Source: Strix aluco (Eukaryota > Chordata > Aves > Strigiformes > Strigidae). Taken from it: a stretch of DNA of 64,000 bases. Positions within the stretch are counted from its first letter, which is position 1; each line of letters begins with the position of its first letter. Where the stretch lies: the NCBI RefSeq assembly GCF_031877795.1, contig NC_133954.1:7841256-7905255 (forward strand). The letters are read 5' to 3'. The notes below the pieces were generated by a model. It did no database searches. It was given only the letters and a program-made list of their open reading frames with translations, and was not told the DNA's origin. The translations under genes were made by a program, and so were the position numbers. This document shows, piece after piece, positions 20,107 through 56,960 of the stretch.

Positions 20107-20433
20107 GAAATTAAAACACTGTATTACCTTTGCTTTTTAGGTACTGAATGTTCAATCTCTAGCTGTTTTCCATGAAGCTCCACTTTCCCTAAAAACAAAA
20201 TGTGTCTGTTTTTTAAAATCTGGGTGGAGTGGTCAGAAAGCTTTGGATAACATACTATCACGTGAAACCTCGCAATTTAATTCAAATTACGACGAACTAC
20301 GCACAAATACATTTTCCGATTCCTTTACAAGTGCATTTTATTAAATATAAGACTGGCTTCAAATGGGAAGCGGTGGGAGGGAGTGGTGAGTTAGCTGTCT
20401 GGACAATGTTCCTTAGGAATATTTAATTCCTTA

Positions 20434-21612
<1,179 letters not shown>

Positions 21613-34139: not shown

Positions 34140-37100
34140 ATGATGTCTTTCAAAGTTCTCTCTCTGCTCCTCGCTTCTCTGGGTTTTGTTTTGATGGAAG
34201 AAAACATCTCGGGGTAAGTGTTTTGGAAAGCTCACAGTGTGTTTTGAGCCTTTTCCAGCTCCCCACTGGAGGCAAATGGATTTTTTCCATTGGCATCTTG
34301 GTAAGTAGGTGAGAACATGAGTCCTGAGGTAGATCTCAGATAATAGAGACAGCCAAGTGTACAGAGATGAGGGAATGATAAGAGAAATATCAAACTAAAG
34401 CCCTGAGCCTTTGAGATGGAGCCAGGAACTCCCAAGTTTTCCCTACAAATTCATAGCTCTGGGTTAGGAGGAACAAGCTGGAAGTAAACCAGGAAGAGAA
34501 GAAGGTTGGCTGTGAACTAGAAACAAGATGTAATCATCTCACATGAATGAGGTTAGGGGGCATCCAGTATTTGGAAGCCTCTGAAAATATGACCAGTTAC
34601 ATAAAGCAGGTATATAATAAAGACTTTCCCTCTCTTTCCCTGACTCCTGCTACAAAATTTCCAACTACTACCCGAGAAGATCCAAAACAATCCTTATTAG
34701 AGCGGTAGGAGTTGCTGCAATCCCAGCTTGTAGGACTAAAAAACAGTCAGCTTTGAAATCCTTTGCTAACTTAGGTAGCCACCAGCTATGTCTCCACTGT
34801 CAGATCACTGGTCTCAGGGTCAGCCCTTGCCCCCTGCCACCCACCCTGAGCCTCTTGAGGACTCAAGAGGCGGATTCCTTGGCCGTAGGTGTGCAGTTCA
34901 CTGGAGGAGGGAGCCTGAGCATGCTTGGTGCCTTAGCTCGGAGCCAAAGTCCATGTGAATCAGGCTACGGCAGGGAAAACCACGCTGACGCCAGACTATC
35001 AGCAACTATCCTGAGCTCATCTCCTCCCAAATTCTCCAATCTGAGCTGCAATTGTCAGGAGCAAGCGAAATGGCTGAGGAGCATGTTAGCCCCTTCCCCG
35101 GCCATCTCCTTAATGTTACAGTGCAGGAATGGTCACCTGTACCGTTAAAAGTGACCACAAAACCTCGCTGGATAGGGACCGCGAGGGCCACCACGTGCAA
35201 CCCAAGCGAAACTCGCCCCGCGTGTGCTCCCGCTCCGTGCAGGACTCACTCTTGTCTCTGTGCTCCTACCCCAGTGTAAGTACAAGGACTCCCAGTGCCA
35301 GACCAGTGCAAAGACGCTACTCTGAGGCCACCCTGGCAAGCGATTACAGCCGCACGATGGATAACATGCTGAAGAAGAACTTTGTGGAATGGTTGCTAGC
35401 CAGACGGGAGAAGAAAAGCGAGTAAGTGTGTAGACTTTCAAAGCTGCTACGATCCAAACTCACAGCTGTCGTCAGCCAACTGATGGCTACACAAGAATGT
35501 AGAGCCGAGGATATTTTTCTTGGACTGCAGAAGTGATTCTCTAGGGAGTCGGTTTTCTTTTTTTCTTTTATTTTTCTAAGTCCTAGAAATGTTTCTGGTC
35601 TGTCGGCACACAGCACAACTATCCCTCTCCCTGTCCAAGACCGCCTTCTTCTCTGGCTGGTAGATGGAGTGGGAGGGAGCTGGATTTTATGGAAAAGAAG
35701 CATTTTGGCACCCTCTTGTGGCATCTCGGGCTGATATCGTCCCATTTTGCCTTTCCAGCAACATCATCGAGTCGTACAAGCGGGAAGCTGAGCCCCAAGT
35801 ATCAGCTGCGAATGGTCAGAGGTTGGACCTGGGCACTCAGGAAGCCAAAGACTTCTTCGCCTGGCTTCTTAAAGCCAAGAAAAATCAGAGGTGAGATGGG
35901 AGAGTAAAAAGAGAAAGTCTGGTTGCAGGGAGGGATGAGGTCCCCAAGTGTTTAACTTTTGAAGGAATGTTTTGGGGCAGGAACCTATGGTAACGGCTTC
36001 ACATGGGGGGAAATAAAAAGAGGATTTTAATTTCGAAAGGAAACTTCACATTTTGCAATTCTGTCTCAGGAGTGAGGAAAAGAACAAAGACCAAAAAAGC
36101 CTCTCTAATTTTGAAATTTCTCGCAAAATACAAACGCCCAAAATATAGATGATTGGGGTCTTTTTTGGTTTTGCAAAGGTCAGCACAGCCTCATCAAAAT
36201 CCAGCGCTTTGATAAGGTCAAAGCACGGACTTTTGACAGGGCTGAGGCGCATCCAGTCCCCTAACAGCCCAACATCACCCTAATGGAGAAGTCAAAATGA
36301 AGTGTTTTGACCTATTCGGAACAAAACCCTCTCAAAAGAAAACTCTCCAGCAAAAATGATGTGAAATTGATACATTTCTGCAAAACATTTTGATTTGATC
36401 AAATCACCCACACGGGGGGGGGGGGGGGGGGGAATCCTACTCGTTCACACTCTCAGCATGTGGACTAGTTAATTTTTTTTTAAAAAGAAGCAAACCAGTT
36501 ATTTCCTCGTATCGCTGCTCCAAGCTCTTATTATGAAAAGCCTGTCATCTAAGCGTGAAACCAGGCAGGGGGAAACCACGCAGCCTGCCTGACCCAGGAG
36601 GAATTTCCCAGTTGGGTTCTGATCTGAGGGTCCCCAATTGCGCAGATTTTTAAGGTGTAATCACCTTAAAATCATCACGATTGTGGTAACGATGGCGATA
36701 CGAGCTTGCTCGGAACAGGTACCTCTGGGCAAGGTAACCTAGTCCATCTGGAGCTCTCTCCTGCTGCAGCTCGTGCCTTCGTTCCCCGAGCCATCTGGCT
36801 GAGAGCACACTTGTGTATCTCAGCGCTGCGTGGCTTTGTGCTGTGTCAGCATATCCACAGCCTGTCAATAGCCTGTTTCACCTCCCCCAATCTTAGCTTA
36901 TGTCACAAATGTTCAAACAGCAAATTAGACACGAGTCCAAAGAAAAATCTGTTCTCAGGCACTTTCTATATTTAAAAAAAAAAAAAAAAACAAACCACAC
37001 CAACATATGAATGAGGGATACATTTCCTTTCTTTAACATGAAGGGGATTTTACAAAACCTAACAGGTTGCTGCTGCTTAGTCCTAAAATGGTGGCAAAAA

Positions 37101-39149
37101 GGAAAAAAGCACTTACCACACACAGCCCACATCCTTCAGGCGCAATCCTAGTGTCTTCTGGCAAAAAAAAAAAAATGGAATTTCTAACTACAGGGAGTCA
37201 TGGGACAGTCACCCAGAACAAGAATCTGGGGGCATTTGTTGTCTTTTACAGCCTTTGCATGAAAACTGCTTTAGAAACCAGGGTGCGGGGGATGACCCAG
37301 GGTGGGGGAAATGAGCACAGTTATGGTTCACAGAGGTGTCTCAGGCCAAGCACTCAGAAAATCAGACACCGAGAATTGCTAGTCATACGGAAAATACAAA
37401 ATCAAAGAAACAAGGGCTTTGAGGGATCTCAAGAGGTCATTTAGTCTGACCTCTGCTCCGAGGCAGGATCAATGCACCCTAAACTGTTCCTGACAGATGT
37501 TTGTCTAACCTGTTCTGGGGGTGGGGGTGGAGGGGGGAAGGGAAACCTTTGATGCTAGAGATTAATCAGCTTGATTAGCTTCATTTTTAAAAAAATAAAA
37601 TGTTTTCTAGTGTCTCCCTCTATGTCCTTAATTGCAAATAAAAAATGCAACTTGCAGAGGAAAGTCCTCCTTGGAAACAAAGAGTTTCCTTTGTGAGTTT
37701 GAAGCATAGATGCTGCTTCACCCACGCTCTGCTTTTGTTTTGATGCCTGCTGGTTCTGAGAGGAGGTGGAGCGAGGCGGGGGGGGTCACCGGACTGTTCC
37801 TTCTCGTCCCCCAAGCCTGACAGACATGTTCACTGCTGGGCAGCCCAAACGTGCCAAGATCAAGGCACTGTTGTGTGCAAGGAGCTCGCCACGTCAAAAA
37901 GAGGTTAAAGCTTTTTGTGGGTTTATCCGAGTCAAAGATACTAAGACAATGAAAATAAAATATCCCTGTGAACTTGAGGGGATTGGGATAACAGACTGTT
38001 GTACACTGCATCTGAATTATTGCCTCTCCTCTGTCGTTATGGCACGGCACATTTCTTGCAGTTTGACTTCTCTGGAAGGTTCAGAAGGTTTGAAGGATGT
38101 TTTGAGCCAGGATTTTCTGACATGGCTGATGCTGACTGATCTCTGCAGACCGATGTGAGTGGCTGTTCTACCTGTTCCTGTTGTTACAAGCATCCCTACA
38201 GATCCTTTCCCAGCCCTTGTCCCCAGAGGTTCTTGCTGCAGTGCTCAATCAATAAATTTAGGATTTCTTTAGATAAACACTGAGTGCTTACATGGCACAG
38301 CTCAGCTGGATTTGACTGGAGAGGTAAGAGCTCTGGCCAGAATTTGGTTCTGCAAAAGTATCTTCAGACTGTTGATACAACAAAGATGGGGGAAGACAAA
38401 TTTCAAAAAATTACTGTCTAGAGAAGGGAGGATAGTAAATCCTTTTCCCCTCTTTTTAATGAGAAAATGAGGTGTTCATCAAACCACTTACAGGAAATAT
38501 TTTTTTCTGTGCATTGTACACTGCTATGAAAGGCATTCAGAGAGACACACAAGACACTGCGATGCAAAAGGTGCAGGGGAGGGCCCTGAGGAGGCTCAAG
38601 GGAATCACGAGCCCATTCTATGTTTAGTTGAGTAAAATGAAGGCTGAGAGAGACAAAGTCACCATCTATAAAAAAACAGAGCAAGAAAAGAGCTGTTTAT
38701 GCTAATAGCAAAAGTTGGCACAAGAACAAAAAGGGATGAACTGGCCATGAATAAATGTAGGTTGGAAATAAGAGGCAGCTCTGTGCTACAGACAATTCCA
38801 TGCAGCTTGGTCAGACAATGTGAGCCGAGTGGCCAGCCAGCAGGCCAGAGAAAACAAATAACGGTTGAGCTCATACTGCAGCCTTTCCTGCAGAGAAACA
38901 CTTATTTGCATCTCTCTCCTCTAATCAGTTGCTGATTTTTCTCAAAACTTGTAGGTGCTTACTATTAGATACTCACTTTGCTACACGTCTTGCTATCAGA
39001 ATGGATTTGCAAGGTGTCAGAGGGGGCTGCAGCGTGGAGAAGGCCGTGACTTATGTGTTTCCTATAGGAACCAAATGAAAATGGGGTAAGTGCAGTACAC
39101 AGGAATTTATGCTTTTCTCTCCCTCTTCTGCTTTGTCAGGTCTGTGTAA
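34140..39149 (+). CDS. GIP: GIP precursor (glucose-dependent insulinotropic polypeptide), complete
   Basis: Secreted incretin of intestinal K cells, acting through the class B receptor GIPR. Coding exons: 34140-34213, 35275-35421, 35759-35890, 38062-38154, 39140-39149, total 456 nt, giving 151 residues (human 153). Residues 1 to about 20 form a signal peptide (VLSLLLASLGFVL core). RR at 38-39 precedes the hormone, which starts YSEATLASDYS at residue 40 and contains NFVEWLLARR; a KR pair at 81-82 gives a 41-residue product. Residues 83-151 are propeptide. The start could be either of two adjacent ATGs (34140 or 34143). All introns obey GT-AG. The last junction aligns with human (LCRL|RSR versus LCRP|MSV). 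Signal peptide, position between IGF2BP1 and SNF8 and hormone sequence leave little doubt; glucagon is excluded by the Y start and by the locus. Confidence 0.93.
35275..35421 (+). CDS. GIP: GIP exon 3: mature hormone exon
   Basis: Phase 2-2 exon of 147 nt, encoding residues 25 (end) to 74 (start). It contains the RR cleavage site and nearly all of mature GIP: YSEATLASDYSRTMDNMLKK followed by NFVEWLLARREKKS. Compared with human GIP (YAEGTFISDYS), position 2 is Ser rather than Ala, position 4 Ala rather than Gly, and position 6 Leu rather than the usual Phe. Further dibasic sites (RR at hormone 29-30, KK at 32-33) could allow a shorter GIP(1-30)-like form. Confidence 0.9.
35759..35890 (+). CDS. 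GIP: GIP exon 4: hormone C-terminus plus GLP-1-like propeptide module
   Basis: Phase 2-2 exon of 132 nt, encoding residues 74-118. After NIIESY the KR pair ends the hormone. The next 31 residues (83-113) start EAE and end in EAKDFFAWLLKA, followed by KK. The core AKDFFAWLLK matches AKEFIAWLVK of GLP-1 at seven of ten positions, and size and flanking dibasic sites also resemble GLP-1. Human GIP shows no such core here. No His/Tyr1 and no GTFTSD-like N-terminus remain, so it is probably not a GLP-1 receptor agonist. Confidence 0.88.
36414..36432. repeat. 19-nt poly-G tract in GIP intron 4
   Basis: Uninterrupted run of 19 G within otherwise AT-rich intronic DNA. Confidence 0.85.
37405..37660 (-). 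repeat. Old CR1 LINE fragment
   Basis: The plus strand contains GAGGTCATTTAGTCTGACCT, GGCAGGATCAATGCACC and CTGACAGATGTTTGTCTAACC, typical of the reverse complement of older avian CR1 families. Similarity then decays through AT-rich sequence up to about 37660. It is much more diverged than the copies at 57.0 and 63.7 kb, hence older. It lies in GIP intron 4. Confidence 0.75.
38062..38154 (+). CDS. GIP: GIP exon 5: GLP-2-like propeptide module
   Basis: Phase 2-2 exon of 93 nt, encoding residues 118-149 (start). It contains LKDVLSQDFLTWLMLTDLC, comparable with ILDNLAARDFINWLIQTK of GLP-2 (DF, WL and T conserved) and with human GIP LRDLLIQELLACLLDQTNLC. The donor GAT|GTGAGT creates an ATG-TGA stop if the intron is retained, so an unspliced form would differ only by loss of the last two residues. 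Confidence 0.85.
38251..38256 (+). terminator. GIP: Possible alternative GIP poly(A) signal
   Basis: AATAAA about 95 bp after the intron-retention stop at 38156-38158. It would end a transcript that reads through the exon 5 donor. Confidence 0.35.
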
Positions 39150-39261
39150 CTCCAGGACCTTCCCGAGGACCTCTCCTCACCCTATCAAGACACATGAGAA
39201 GGAGGAAGATGTCTTATATTCACTCTGTTCTGTGCATATTGTCTGTTTTGCTAATGCAAGC

Positions 39262-39267
39262 AATAAA
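39262..39267 (+). terminator. GIP: GIP poly(A) signal
   Basis: AATAAA 113 bp after the TAA stop (39147-39149), giving a last exon of roughly 150 bp like the short terminal exon of mammalian GIP. Confidence 0.75.
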
Positions 39268-39499: not shown

Positions 39500-39960
39500 A
39501 AAAATGATGTTGGCATCAGCTGTGGGGGGTGAAGTCCAGCCTAGGCTGCAGGGAAACAAACCCTGGCCGAGGGCTGGCCCCGCTGAAAGCCACCTGGGAG
39601 CCAGCCCACCCTTCCAAAGGGGTCCTGAGGACTCACCCTCCCTCCTGACCCCCCCAAACCGGGGCTCCCCCGCACCCCCCCGAGGAGAACACCATCCCAC
39701 AGAAGGGACCCAGCCCCACAAACAGGGCCAAAAATCTGGGGGGTCACCTTTACCCAAAGCAGGGCTCCCCCCCATCCCGGGGGAGACTGAAGCCCCCTCC
39801 AGTGAGAGCTACCCCCCCCCCACGGAGGGGGGGTCACCCTCCCACAGAGGGGACCGAGACCCCCAGCAGGGCCTCACCCCCCCATAGACACACACAAGGA
39901 CACACACACACACCCCCGCGTGGTCTGAGGCCCCTCAGTGCCCCCCCAGGCCCTCGGGGG
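39500..39960. repeat. C-rich degenerate repeat region between GIP and SNF8
   Basis: Imperfect repetition of GGGTCACC, GGGGCTCCCCC and CCCACAGAGGGGACC-like words, plus an (AC)n tract at 39888-39913. The unit length is irregular, as in a decayed minisatellite. All six frames here look open only because of the biased composition. Confidence 0.5.
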
Positions 39961-40043
39961 GTGACCCCGGGGCGGGATCCCCGTTACACGAGGGGGGGAC
40001 ACCCCACCCCTGCCGTGCGTCGGCACCGCCCGTCGCGGGGTGA

Positions 40044-40051
40044 TGACGTCA
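40044..40051 (+). promoter_or_regulatory. SNF8: Consensus CRE in the SNF8 CpG promoter
   Basis: Perfect palindrome TGACGTCA, 30 bp before the SNF8 ATG, within a CpG-rich segment (about 39960-40400) with no TATA box. CREB/ATF binding is a motif-based inference. Confidence 0.6.
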
Positions 40052-40080
40052 GACGGAGCGCGGCGGGCAGCGGGGCCGGG

Positions 40081-43000
40081 ATGCACCGGCGGGGGGTGGG
40101 CGCGGGCGCCATCGCCAAGAAGAAGCTCGCGGAGGTGAGGGGCGCCGGGACCCTGCTGGGGAGGGGGCGGCCCGGGCTGGGTTGGCGGGGGGGAACGTGT
40201 CAGAGCCAGTGCGAGGCGTGTCAGGCCCGTATGAGGGGACCGGGACCGACGGAGCCCGTGGGGGGAGGTACCGGGCCCGTGTAAGGGGGGGTCAGGCCCC
40301 CCAGTCTCGGGTGGGGGGAGCTGCCAGGCCCCATCGGGCCCGTGTGAGGGGGGCTAGGCCCCTTCTGCCCTGTGGTGGGGGGTGCCAGGCTCGGTGTGGG
40401 GCCATCCCCGGCCTCACATCAGCCATCCCAGCCCGGTGCCAGCCCTGCGCCACGTCCACGGTGCCACGAGCTTCCTGGCAGCCTCCCTGCTTGCCCAGGG
40501 CACGAGGCTCTGTGTCCTCCTGGTTCATCCCTCCTTAAGGAGCATCTCCCTCATCCAGTTCTGGTTTCTGGTCCATCTGCCCTTCAGCACTGTCTCCATC
40601 ATCGTGTTTTCCTCCTGCAGGCGAAGTACAAGGAGCGAGGGACGGTCTTGGCCGAGGACCAGCTGGCCCAGGTGGGAGATTCACGCCTGCCCTGGCAGCA
40701 GGAATAACGGTGGTTGTGAGCCCAGCAAACCTGGGTTTCATTTCCTCCTCTGCTTCAGTGACTGGAGCACTGTCCACGAGAGGTGTGGATAACGACGGCA
40801 CCCATTAGGCTGCCTTGCCATCAGAGAGCTGTGATGTTTGCTACAGGTCTCACTCTGCCTCCCGAGACCTCAGTGACACCTCGTTTTTGTAGAACTGTTT
40901 CTACCCTGTGTACACCACAGAATAACTGCTGCCCCCCTTCACAGCCTGTCTCTTCGATCAGAACAGCCCTTTGCCTTATCTCTGCTGTGGTCTGATACTG
41001 GTTTGAATTCAGTGTTAAAAGCGTGGAGAATTCTCATTTAATCAAGCAATTTTATCTGGTTTCCTTCCTTTTAAGATCACTGGGCAGGCAGCACATCAGA
41101 GCCCTGAGTGTTTCTTGAGGACTCTGCTCGCTTAGTGCCTGTTGGGGGCTGTGTTTATGCAAAAACTGCATAAAATAAGTGCTAAGACAGAAACACTTCT
41201 CTGCGATTCTCTTTCAGATGTCTAAGCAGCTGGACATGTTTAAGACCAACTTAGAAGAGTTTGCCAGCAAACACAAGCAAGAGATCCGTAAAAACCCCGA
41301 GTTCCGGGTCCAGTTCCAGGATATGTGTGCAACAATCGGAGTGGATCCTTTGGCATGTGAGGAACAGGCACTGGGGTTAATGACTAAGGACTCATCGCAC
41401 TGTTCTCATATTGTAAACTGTTTCCTTGAGGAGAGCTGATGGTGTTTTGATTCCTGGGGTTTGTGAATCAGTGTAATGTACTGTTGGGTGTTACTTACTT
41501 AAAAGGGTGGGGGAAAATAGTAACCAAAATGGAGACTCTTCTCCGACAGATCTGAGAGTCCTCACAGCGAGGTTTGTGAGCAGTCTGTGTCACACCAGGA
41601 ACTGTTAAGGAAGGATATTTTTGCCAGTGGTCCAATCACTTTCCTCTTTCTCGCTTCACAGCTGGTAAGGGATTCTGGTCAGAGATGCTGGGAGTTGGAG
41701 ACTTTTACTATGAACTGGGTGTGCAGATCATTGAAGTTTGCCTGGCTCTGAAACACCGGAATGGAGGTGAGGATCCCACCGTGTCTGGTTTCTAGGAGAT
41801 ACAGCTAACGGGAGGATACCTTTCCCTGTGGAAAATGAGGCGCACGGCTCAGCGTAGTGCTCTTTACTAGATTTCACAAATTACTGAATGGCAGTTCAGT
41901 CTTCATTGTCCCCAAAAAGCTTTGTTTTCTTTCTATAACATGTTACAGCTACACCACTGGTAATCACCCAGCTTTATTGGTTCCTGCAGAAATCAGCCAG
42001 CTCTGCCCTGTGTAGGTAACAAAACCATAACTCACAGGATCGCGGGGAAGGAGCAGGGATCCATGACAATCTTGGAGTACAAAGCTGATAAGTTACGGCG
42101 TTGAGCCTGGCAGTAAGATTGTCTCTAAAGGATCACAGCAATATCCCGAAGAGTTGGAATACCAGTGATAAGTGCCTCATGAAAAGATAGTAGATGTTCT
42201 TCACTCCAAAAGGGCAATCTGAGACCAGGAATGGGCTACAGCAAAGCCTGTTGAAACTTGAGTCCGATACATTTGTGGGAGAAGGCAACAGCTGAGCTGC
42301 ATGTTAGTTCTGGGAACAGAAGTGACGATGCTGATCTCACCCGAGGCTGGATACTGGGAACAATGAACAGCCGCTTGTAAAAGGGAAGGCAGGGGTGAGC
42401 CAGCGCCAAACGCACAAAGGATCCTTGACTGCTCTTGCTGGATGACTTTTGTAATGCTCTCCTATCTCCTTTTGTTGACTTCTAGGTCTGATAACACTGG
42501 AAGAACTTCATCAGCAAGTGCTGAAGGGAAGGGGGAAGTTTGCTCAGGATGTCAGCCAGTGAGTGTCTGCATGTTACAGGAAAGGGGAATCAAGTAGCAT
42601 TCAGGGAAGAAAAGGGGGGTGACTGATCTCAGCAGCACTTGTAGGCGCTGCTGTTCATTGGACTTCAAATTTGACTTCTAGCAATGGAGCCACTTAACAC
42701 GTGATCCACTTCAGAAATTGTGACCATTTCAGAAAGCAGCAGCGTGCTTTCTCCAGGAGCCCTGAGGCATAGAGGACTGTTGCCTTGAGCTGGAGACAGT
42801 TCCCTGCAAATCCAGCTCTTTCTGCCCCAGTCTGCTGAAGCTGCTGTGGTCTCCTGAGCTGTAAGGAAGGGGCTGATGGGTGTCACTACAGAAATGGACT
42901 TTAGGACACAACTCACCATGATCACTGATTGGGGCTGAATCTTAAAGAATTTAGCACCTGCAGCTCAGGTGCTACAAGTGTGACTCTACTGCAAGTCTGT

Positions 43001-55900: not shown

Positions 55901-56538
55901 ACCGCTGGTGAGGGGGTGGTGAGGCCCAGGGGACCGTTACCGCCCCGAGGGTACTGGGGCCGAGCCAAGCGCCTCTGCCGCGTTATGAGCCTCGGCTCCG
56001 AGCCCGCTTTCCGCCCGGGCTGCCCCCCCAACACACGCCGGGGGGCTCCCCGGCCCGCGGCTGGCTAGGCCCGGGGGAGCCCCGCGAGGTCGGCAGAGGC
56101 GAGGACCGGAGCCACCCCCGAGGTCGCTACGGGAACCGGCACCCGGCAGCGCCGCTCAGCCCCCGGGCCCGGGGCGGGGAGGCTCCGCCGCTCACGGGCA
56201 GGGCGGCTCTCTCACCGTTTGATCCGCAGGAGGCAGGCCGGGCTGGGCCGCTCGCTGTCCCAGTCGCCGCTGACCGTGGGGTCCCAGAAGGCGGAGTGCG
56301 TGAGGAGCGCGGCCCCCGCGGCCGCCGCCGCCGCCGCGATGGGGGCCCCGCCGCTCCCCGGGGCGACGCCGGCGCCCGGCGTCGCAGCGCCGAAGCCCGC
56401 CGCCGCCCACAGCTCGGCGGGGATGAAGACGCCGGGGCTCCCCGCGCCGCCGCCCGGGCCGGCCGAAGCGCCGCCGCTACCCGCCGCCGCCAGCACCGCG
56501 GCCGGAGCCGCCTCCTCGGCGGCCGGACTCTCCGCCAT
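46946..56538 (-). CDS. UBE2Z: UBE2Z (USE1), UBA6-specific ubiquitin-conjugating enzyme, complete
   Basis: E2 enzyme charged by UBA6, transferring ubiquitin and also FAT10. Coding exons in order: 56538-56216, 54390-54318, 52523-52336, 50389-50278, 49684-49572, 49028-48938, 47116-46946. They total 1071 nt and give 356 residues (human 354). Residues 1-90 are a low-complexity Ala/Gly/Pro tail (starts [15 protein letters not shown]). The UBC core spans about 100-255: [63 protein letters not shown]. The catalytic Cys is residue 190 and the usual HPN triad region reads FNPN. The C-terminal extension ends in an acidic Ser-rich tail ([12 protein letters not shown]). An in-frame ATG pair 73 codons upstream (56757) could give a longer form; MAESP matches the known start. 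Introns are GT-AG. Confidence 0.97.
52861..52881. repeat. 21-nt poly-A tract in UBE2Z intron 2
   Basis: Pure A run with no retroposon body recognised beside it. Confidence 0.8.
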
Positions 56539-56960
56539 TCCGCGCCCGGCCTCGGGGAACGCCGCTTCCGGGACTCCGCACCAGCGAGTCCGCCGGCCAG
56601 AGCGGCCCCCGCCCCTCGCCTCCACCACCGATCGCCGGCCAGAGCGGCGCCTCCCCCGCTCCCCCCTCCCACTACCGCCACTAACTCCCCCCACCCACCA
56701 TAGAGTCTCGCCCCCCTCCGGCGCCAGAGCGCCCCTTCCATAGAGACGCCTCATCATAGGCTAGAGTGTACGCCGGGAGCAGCGCGCCTCCTGCTGCGGG
56801 GGGGTGTCCCGGGCTGGAAGCAGCAGAAATAACTAGTTTGGGGCTTTTTGGGTGGAAAAAACTCTGTTGGGAAGTGGCTGCTCAACAGCCTCGCTCTCAG
56901 CTCGCCTCGGCCTGCGGAGACGTGGCAGGACAGCGTTACAGAGCGGAGTGAGGCGCAGCC
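55900..56960 (-). promoter_or_regulatory. UBE2Z: UBE2Z CpG-island promoter and 5' UTR
   Basis: Dense CpG sequence over exon 1 and upstream. An ETS-like site (CTTCCGG, 56565-56571; CCGGAAG on minus) lies just before the ATG. The 16-bp word CGCCGGCCAGAGCGGC occurs twice (56591-56606, 56633-56648). No TATA box was found. The start site probably lies within 56570-56760. Confidence 0.6.

What the first reader, a model, noticed from the sequence alone, without database searches (positions are those of the whole stretch)
35275..38154. Bird GIP precursor keeps a proglucagon-like three-module layout (GIP, GLP-1-like, GLP-2-like)
Exons 3, 4 and 5 are 147, 132 and 93 nt, all multiples of three and all phase 2-2. 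Each encodes an aromatic-Trp core: NFVEWLLARR (exon 3), DFFAWLLKAKK (exon 4), DFLTWLMLTD (exon 5). Exon 4 AKDFFAWLLK compares with GLP-1 AKEFIAWLVK; exon 5 DFLTWLMLT compares with GLP-2 DFINWLIQT. Proglucagon carries glucagon, GLP-1 and GLP-2 on its exons 3, 4 and 5. The GIP propeptide, seemingly featureless in human, would then be the remains of two extra hormone modules, with the bird copy as the informative intermediate. I do not know of a description of this, but cannot exclude one.
Basis: partly seen in the sequence, partly recalled or inferred. Interest (0 to 1): 0.85.

Follow-up and report, generated by a model that had tools for sequence, protein, structure and literature searches.

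The report
GIP precursor with relic hormone modules
The gene for the gut hormone GIP in this bird carries, after the hormone itself, two worn-down copies of the kind of hormone unit found in the glucagon/GLP-1/GLP-2 gene, which suggests that today's incretin genes share a several-hormone ancestor.

Summary
The same genome holds proglucagon (GCG), so exons could be compared directly: GCG exons 3-5 are 162, 138 and 144 nt, also phase 2-2, and in both genes the core Trp lies 8-10 codons before each intron. Exon 4 is significantly similar to GCG exons, exon 5 less firmly. A profile made only from exons 4 and 5 finds glucagon-family chains as its ten best PDB hits, best E 1.5e-4. Neither exon is nearest to GIP's own exon 3. 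Exon 4 leans to GLP-1 (74% of bootstraps); exon 5 is undecided between glucagon and GLP-2. Both lack the receptor-activating N-terminal half: relics, not agonists. The paralogue GCRP has no such modules. Homology is very likely; a shared three-module ancestor is likely but unproven; any function is inferred. I found no description in the open-access library; key subscription papers could not be read. Unexpectedly, the genome seems to keep a GIP receptor gene, reported as lost in birds.

The parts
34140..39267 (+). GIP gene from start codon (exon 2) to polyA signal AATAAA (39262-39267); exon 6 coding part 39140-39149 with stop TAA 39147-39149
   Evidence: Open spliced frame of 151 aa; 39 of 41 hormone residues as in chicken GIP. 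Flanking ORFs that I read as IGF2BP1 (20431-21612, minus), SNF8 (39649-40284, plus) and UBE2Z (56212-56760, minus) (gene names and human gene order recalled)
34140..34213 (+). Exon 2 coding part: signal peptide region, ends in phase 2
   Evidence: Reading; GT donor at 34214
35275..35421 (+). Exon 3, module 1: GIP hormone, preceded by RR 35312-35317; Trp codon 35390; split codon at W+10
   Evidence: Pfam Hormone_2 E 1.1e-10
35759..35890 (+). Exon 4, module 2 (GLP-1-like relic): KR 35778-35783, core LGTQEAKDFFAWLLKA, Trp codon 35862, KK 35877-35882; split codon at W+9
   Evidence: Second of 2,090 pieces; shuffle tests; nearest to GLP-1; donor-anchored scan
35784..35876 (+). 31-residue stretch between KR and KK of exon 4 that prohormone convertase could in principle release (inferred)
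   Evidence: Codon positions; cleavage itself not shown
38062..38154 (+). Exon 5, module 3 (relic, GLP-2-like or glucagon-like): core LKDVLSQDFLTWLMLT, Trp codon 38123; split codon at W+10
   Evidence: Third of 2,090 pieces, narrowly; shuffle tests

Best explanation
Exons 4 and 5 of the GIP gene are decayed glucagon-type hormone modules. The simplest history is that GIP and GCG descend from one precursor gene with three tandem module exons, each phase 2-2. GCG kept all three as hormones; GIP kept the first as GIP and let the other two lose their N-terminal, receptor-activating halves while keeping the C-terminal F..WL half. In this bird the precursor is probably cut at RR and KR to free GIP, and the rest (module 2 between KR and KK, module 3 to the C terminus) is by-product. 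The F..WL halves may have been kept because that motif helps the prohormone pack in acidic granules. Likelihoods: homology of exons 4 and 5 to proglucagon modules about 0.9 (shown by sequence and gene structure); one shared three-module ancestor about 0.65 (inferred); granule-packing role about 0.35 (inferred from a published property of the motif).
For: GIP-free family profile ranks exons 3, 4, 5 as 1, 2, 3 of 2,090 pieces. Shuffle tests: exon 4 to GCG exons 3, 4, 5 p 5e-5, 1.5e-4, 3.5e-4; exon 5 p 1.5e-4, 4.5e-3, 3.5e-4. Profile of exons 4+5 alone against 177,635 PDB sequences: ten best hits are glucagon/GLP peptides or analogues as I read their names (one, gluc_A04_0005, is less clear), best E 1.5e-4. 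Same phase in GIP and GCG of one genome and Trp-to-intron spacing +10, +9, +10 against +8, +9, +9. Neither exon is nearest to GIP exon 3. Storage role of xFxxWL: PMC10394066, passages.
Against: Pfam Hormone_2 misses both exons. Alone against the PDB, exon 4 gives only E 0.44-0.97 and exon 5 one unrelated hit, E 0.11. In the GLP-2 profile a chance piece beats exons 4 and 5; in the GLP-1+2 profile exon 5 is sixth, behind three chance pieces; in 222.5 kb one chance piece beats exon 5. GCRP, reported as an ohnologue, has no modules 2 and 3, so an early triplication needs losses there. Exon 4 core not detected in recalled human and mouse GIP (p 0.45 and 0.41). No second bird was available, so constraint on exons 4 and 5 is untested.
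Confidence: 0.68

Rival explanations
1. Independent duplication: exons 4 and 5 arose inside the GIP lineage by copying GIP's own hormone exon, and the likeness to GLP-1 and GLP-2 comes only from the shared family core.
For: GCRP lacks the modules. Exon 5 against GIP exon 3 is also above shuffles, score 34, p 0.0013, and GIP is the best group in 574 of 5,000 bootstraps for exon 5. Exon gain in this family is known: GLP-1 exon triplicated in Xenopus (PMC8312260, passages).
Against: Exon 4 is far nearer GLP-1 (BLOSUM 46) than GIP exon 3 (24), exon 5 nearer glucagon and GLP-2 (39-41) than GIP exon 3 (30); exon 4 to GIP exon 3 only p 0.017; GIP is best group for exon 4 in 18 of 5,000 bootstraps.
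Confidence: 0.22
2. Chance: an ordinary propeptide that happens to hold two F..WL helices.
For: The core is short. Exon 5 barely beats chance pieces, and 3 of 10 donor-anchored cores in 222.5 kb are chance.
Against: Two exons of one gene show it at the family's intron spacing; shuffle p-values 5e-5 to 4.5e-3 over the six comparisons with GCG exons; the two-exon PDB search is significant.
Confidence: 0.05
3. Live extra peptide: the KR/KK-bounded module 2 is released and docks through its GLP-1-type F..WL end on a glucagon-family receptor without activating it, a natural antagonist or modulator; module 3 may be a further peptide.
For: Dibasic sites on both sides of the 31-residue stretch; the kept half is the segment that contacts receptor extracellular domains (PMC10394066, passages); GLP1R and a GIPR-like gene are present in this genome.
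Against: No peptide, transcript or conservation data; dibasic sites are common; recalled mammals lack the exon 4 core; a common human allele is said to remove exons 5 and 6 (PMC11931254, passage).
Confidence: 0.1

Closest known systems
Proglucagon (GCG) of the same genome, C6:19934216-19939282
   Same: Three consecutive module exons, all phase 2-2, F..WL core with the split codon at W+8, +9, +9 (GIP +10, +9, +10); KR early in exon 4
   Different: All three GCG modules are complete hormones with an intact HxxG N-terminal half; in GIP only the first is, and exon 5 is 93 nt against 144
GCRP (glucagon-related peptide) of the same genome, C27:2354418
   Same: Hormone exon with phase-2 donor at W+8; by eye, exon 4 starts with a short linker and KR
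   Different: One hormone only; by eye the frame stops in exon 4, and the profile scan of 20 kb finds no further module
Human and mouse GIP precursors (recalled)
   Same: Exon 5 part aligns (p 1.2e-3 human, 2e-4 mouse); mouse keeps the Trp
   Different: Exon 4 core not detected (p 0.45 and 0.41)

Membership tests
GIP gene | GIP hormone sequence, precursor layout and neighbouring genes | tested here: met
   39 of 41 residues as in chicken; flanking ORFs read as IGF2BP1, SNF8, UBE2Z (names recalled)
Glucagon/secretin hormone module (exons 4 and 5) | Match to Pfam Hormone_2 | tested here: not met
   Exon 3 only, E 1.1e-10; exons 4 and 5 no match at E up to 10
Glucagon/secretin hormone module (exons 4 and 5) | C-terminal F..WL half related to GCG, GLP-1, GLP-2 | tested here: met
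   firm for exon 4, weaker for exon 5
Glucagon/secretin hormone module (exons 4 and 5) | N-terminal activating half (H/Y-x-E/D-G-T-F-T-S-D type) | tested here: not met
   Positions 1-13 read EPQVSAANGQRLD in exon 4; exon 5 has only SLTSLEGSEG before its core
Glucagon/secretin hormone module (exons 4 and 5) | Own exon, phase 2-2, core at fixed distance from the donor | tested here: met
   phase alone is not specific, since by eye the seven hormone exons of L010, L011, L013 and L014 also end in phase 2
Glucagon/secretin hormone module (exons 4 and 5) | Release by prohormone cleavage and receptor activity | not testable with these tools
   Dibasic sites only: KR and KK around module 2
Proglucagon-like three-module precursor | Modules correspond one to one with glucagon, GLP-1, GLP-2 | tested here: inconclusive
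   Exon 4 to GLP-1 3,679 of 5,000 bootstraps; exon 5 glucagon 2,251, GLP-2 2,061
Proglucagon-like three-module precursor | Layout shared by GIP of other vertebrate classes | not tested
   No other vertebrate GIP gene was available; only recalled human and mouse proteins

The most novel reading that the evidence does not exclude
The bird GIP gene still makes three peptides: GIP, plus a KR/KK-bounded module 2 peptide that keeps the GLP-1-type receptor-docking end without the activating head and so acts as a natural antagonist or modulator of a glucagon-family receptor, plus a C-terminal module 3 peptide. The incretin genes would then descend from a three-hormone precursor older than the GIP/GCG split.
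Probability: 0.1. Interest if true: 0.87.

Novelty: new variant of a known kind. Interest (0 to 1): 0.62.

Why it matters
GIP and GLP-1 are the two incretins and both are drug targets. If the GIP propeptide is the remains of two further hormone modules, the exon triplication of proglucagon is older than the split of GIP from GCG, the otherwise featureless human C-terminal propeptide has an explanation, and there are specific sequences to look for in peptidomics. It makes a relation that one study called inconclusive, that of GIP to the GCG exons (PMC2880984, passages), testable exon by exon.

Tried and rejected
Chance resemblance: judged unlikely from shuffles, six-frame background, donor-anchored scan and PDB search. 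NCBIfam on a typed precursor: one weak, irrelevant hit, E 0.17. Single-exon PDB searches: exon 4 weak, exon 5 unrelated. Whole-genome protein searches with exon 4 or exon 5 (E up to 10): each found only itself. Extra modules in GCRP: none found. Relatives of GIP in viral contigs: none. Hydrophobic moment: uninformative, the true hormones did not stand out either. The idea that the propeptide might matter because birds lack a GIP receptor: dropped, because this genome seems to have one. Prior description: ten paper searches, none found in the open-access library; the papers most likely to hold one (Irwin 2002, Irwin and Zhang 2006, Irwin 2009, Irwin and Prentice 2011, Irwin 2020) were seen only as citations or in reference lists.

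Full report
WHAT IS THERE. The window carries a complete-looking GIP gene on the + strand. I read each exon boundary directly: coding part of exon 2 34140-34213, exon 3 35275-35421, exon 4 35759-35890, exon 5 38062-38154, exon 6 from 39140 with TAA at 39147-39149. The four coding introns are phase 2. The precursor is 151 aa. The hormone part differs from chicken GIP, as printed in PMC3679108, at 2 of 41 positions. Flanking ORFs that I recognise as IGF2BP1 (20431-21612, minus), SNF8 (39649-40284, plus) and UBE2Z (56212-56760, minus) give the neighbourhood of GIP; names and human order are recalled. No transcript was seen; exon 6 rests on frame, splice sites and a polyA signal at 39262-39267.

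SAME-GENOME COMPARISON. The window's assembly could be searched (window is G000:C24:7841256-7905255, 1.41 Gb, 202 contigs). Its GCG gene lies on C6 (L009). GCG exons 3, 4, 5 are 162, 138, 144 nt and phase 2-2. Counted from the core Trp, the split codon lies at +8, +9, +9 in GCG and +10, +9, +10 in GIP. For mammals, Irwin 2021 states that GCG exon 6 has only 4 coding bases (PMC8312260, passages), which also means phase 2 there. By eye, the seven hormone exons of L010, L011, L013 and L014 also end in phase 2, so phase alone is a superfamily trait and not proof.

STATISTICS. (a) A profile of 13 GCG, GLP-1, GLP-2 and GCRP peptides, no GIP, run on the 2,090 six-frame pieces of at least 20 aa in the window, puts exons 3, 4, 5 first, second, third (E 1.8e-5, 0.0085, 0.22; next, a chance piece, 0.28). 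With the two GIP peptides added, exon 5 scores 10.3 bits against 7.7 for the next chance piece. The GLP-1 profile puts exon 4 first (11.7 bits) and exon 3 fifth. The GLP-2 profile puts exon 3 first, a chance piece second, exon 4 third, exon 5 fourth. The GLP-1+2 profile puts exon 4 first, exon 3 second and exon 5 sixth, behind three chance pieces. (b) Over 18 sources, 222.5 kb and 6,789 pieces, the GIP-free profile ranks exon 4 tenth, with only hormone exons of the superfamily above it, and exon 5 fifteenth, with one chance piece above it; the 15-peptide profile ranks them 9 and 12 with no chance piece above either (18 of the 30 sources held, that is the window and 17 of 29 loci; the other 12 repeat or overlap these, L018 only in part). 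(c) Donor-anchored cores F..W[LIVM], 7-11 codons before a phase-2 donor: 4 donors among 4,234 candidate exons in the window, 3 of them GIP exons 3-5; in 222.5 kb 10 donors among 16,543 candidates, namely GIP three, GCG three, GCRP one, chance three. (d) Smith-Waterman against 20,000 shuffles: exon 4 to GCG exons 3, 4, 5 scores 52, 46, 42 (p 5e-5, 1.5e-4, 3.5e-4); exon 5 scores 41, 29, 40 (p 1.5e-4, 4.5e-3, 3.5e-4); exon 4 to GIP exon 3 31 (p 0.017); exon 5 to GIP exon 3 34 (p 0.0013). (e) A profile of the C-terminal halves of exons 4 and 5 alone (24 residues each, cut around the Trp by me; alignment A1) against 177,635 PDB sequences: the ten best are glucagon or GLP peptides or analogues as I read their names (one, gluc_A04_0005, less clear), best E 1.5e-4; 27 of 58 hits at E up to 10 are of that family by the same reading, several being drug analogues whose family I recall; the first unrelated chain has E 0.074. 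Alone, exon 4 gave three hits, all of that family, at E 0.44-0.97, and exon 5 one unrelated hit, E 0.11.

WHICH MODULE IS WHICH. Anchored on the Trp and compared with 20 family peptides, exon 4 LGTQEAKDFFAWLLKA is nearest human GLP-1 (9 of 16 identical, BLOSUM 46), then this genome's and chicken GLP-1 (8 of 16, 41); GIP exon 3 is low (24). Exon 5 LKDVLSQDFLTWLMLT is nearest medaka glucagon (41), this genome's GLP-2 (40) and glucagon (39); GIP exon 3 has 30 and GLP-1 24-25. In 5,000 column bootstraps exon 4 goes to GLP-1 3,679, GCRP 786, glucagon 400, GLP-2 117, GIP 18 times; exon 5 to glucagon 2,251, GLP-2 2,061, GIP 574, GLP-1 110, GCRP 4 times. So exon 4 as GLP-1-like is moderately supported, and exon 5 as GLP-2-like is possible but undecided. 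Exon 4 also aligns beyond the core: its KR at 35778-35783 meets the KR before glucagon and the KR of GCG exon 4 in the local alignments.

WHAT IS LOST. The activating N-terminal half is gone in both exons, Pfam Hormone_2 matches neither, and searching the genome with either exon peptide finds only itself. These are worn modules. GCRP, described as a paralogue of GCG and GIP from early vertebrate genome duplications (PMC3679108, passages), has no module 2 or 3 in the 20 kb scanned; by eye its frame ends in exon 4 soon after a KR. In recalled human and mouse GIP the exon 5 part aligns (p 1.2e-3 and 2e-4) and mouse keeps the Trp, but exon 4 does not align (p 0.45 and 0.41).

HOW IT PROBABLY WORKS. 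Shown: gene structure, homology signal, dibasic sites. Inferred: cleavage at RR and KR frees GIP; module 2 (KR to KK) and module 3 are by-products. Why the core survives is open. The motif xFxxWL is reported as both the receptor-docking segment and the aggregation-prone core for granule storage (PMC10394066, passages), so I favour granule packing (about 0.35) over an active antagonist peptide (about 0.1); simple slow decay is not excluded. A common human variant is said to truncate GIP by loss of exons 5 and 6 (PMC11931254, passage), so exon 5 seems dispensable in people.

RECEPTOR SIDE NOTE. Irwin 2021 says Gipr was lost on the bird lineage. Recalled human GIPR finds its best match in this genome at C33:2592196-2592387, with further exons at C33:2590466-2592029 and no stops inside any of the four listed C33 matches. 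On L020 eight tblastn pieces from the extracellular domain to the tail are 35-81% identical; the 35% one runs through introns with stops. Summed scores do not separate GIPR (412) from GCGR (425) at this locus, but about 3-7 kb downstream lie an F-box ORF that I read as FBXO46 and an M28 peptidase ORF that I read as QPCTL, neighbours of GIPR in human (names and order recalled). SNRPD2, expected next door, was not found in the 25 kb of C33 fetched, and the genome-wide search for it did not complete. I take this as a probably retained GIPR on a small contig with 66-70% GC in the flanks, to be confirmed.

PRIOR WORK. PMC2880984 (passages) says GIP is encoded by a single exon in a gene of similar organisation to GCG and calls the sequence relation inconclusive. 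PMC9277503 (passages) says GIP(1-42) was long held to be the only hormone of its gene, until an N-terminal peptide was found. PMC3500760 (passages) cites Irwin 2002 and Irwin and Prentice 2011 for genome duplication as the source of GCG, GIP and exendin genes. PMC12714231 (passages) reports zebrafish gut peptides; I saw none from pro-GIP in the passages shown. Ten searches found no statement that GIP exons 4 and 5 are glucagon-like modules. Subscription papers were not readable, so priority is not established.

Noticed in passing
L020 (G000:C33:2588001-2597000), pieces at C33:2590466-2594161; neighbours in L029 (C33:2597001-2605000): A GIPR-like receptor gene beside ORFs that read as FBXO46 and QPCTL, on a small GC-rich contig, although PMC8312260 (passage) says birds lost Gipr. 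Summed scores alone do not separate it from GCGR (412 against 425) and SNRPD2 was not found nearby.
   Followed up: partly
L022 (G000:C15:5093001-5103000): A further glucagon-subfamily receptor gene with no clear best human match (GCGR 401, GLP1R 374, GIPR 373), possibly the GCRP receptor.
   Followed up: no
L016/L017, after C27:2354418: GCRP exon 4 reads, by eye, SSSTKRYLKEEPRSVPFPAAFPPLA and a stop: an early KR as in GIP and GCG exon 4 but no hormone module, perhaps a further stage of loss.
   Followed up: partly
L010 (C16:11543673-11543756 and 11544064-11544147): Two adjacent secretin-like hormone exons (HADGLFHSELSK..., HSDGLFTSEYSK...) about 0.3 kb apart, which look like secretin and a secretin-like peptide in one gene (identity recalled).
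   Followed up: no
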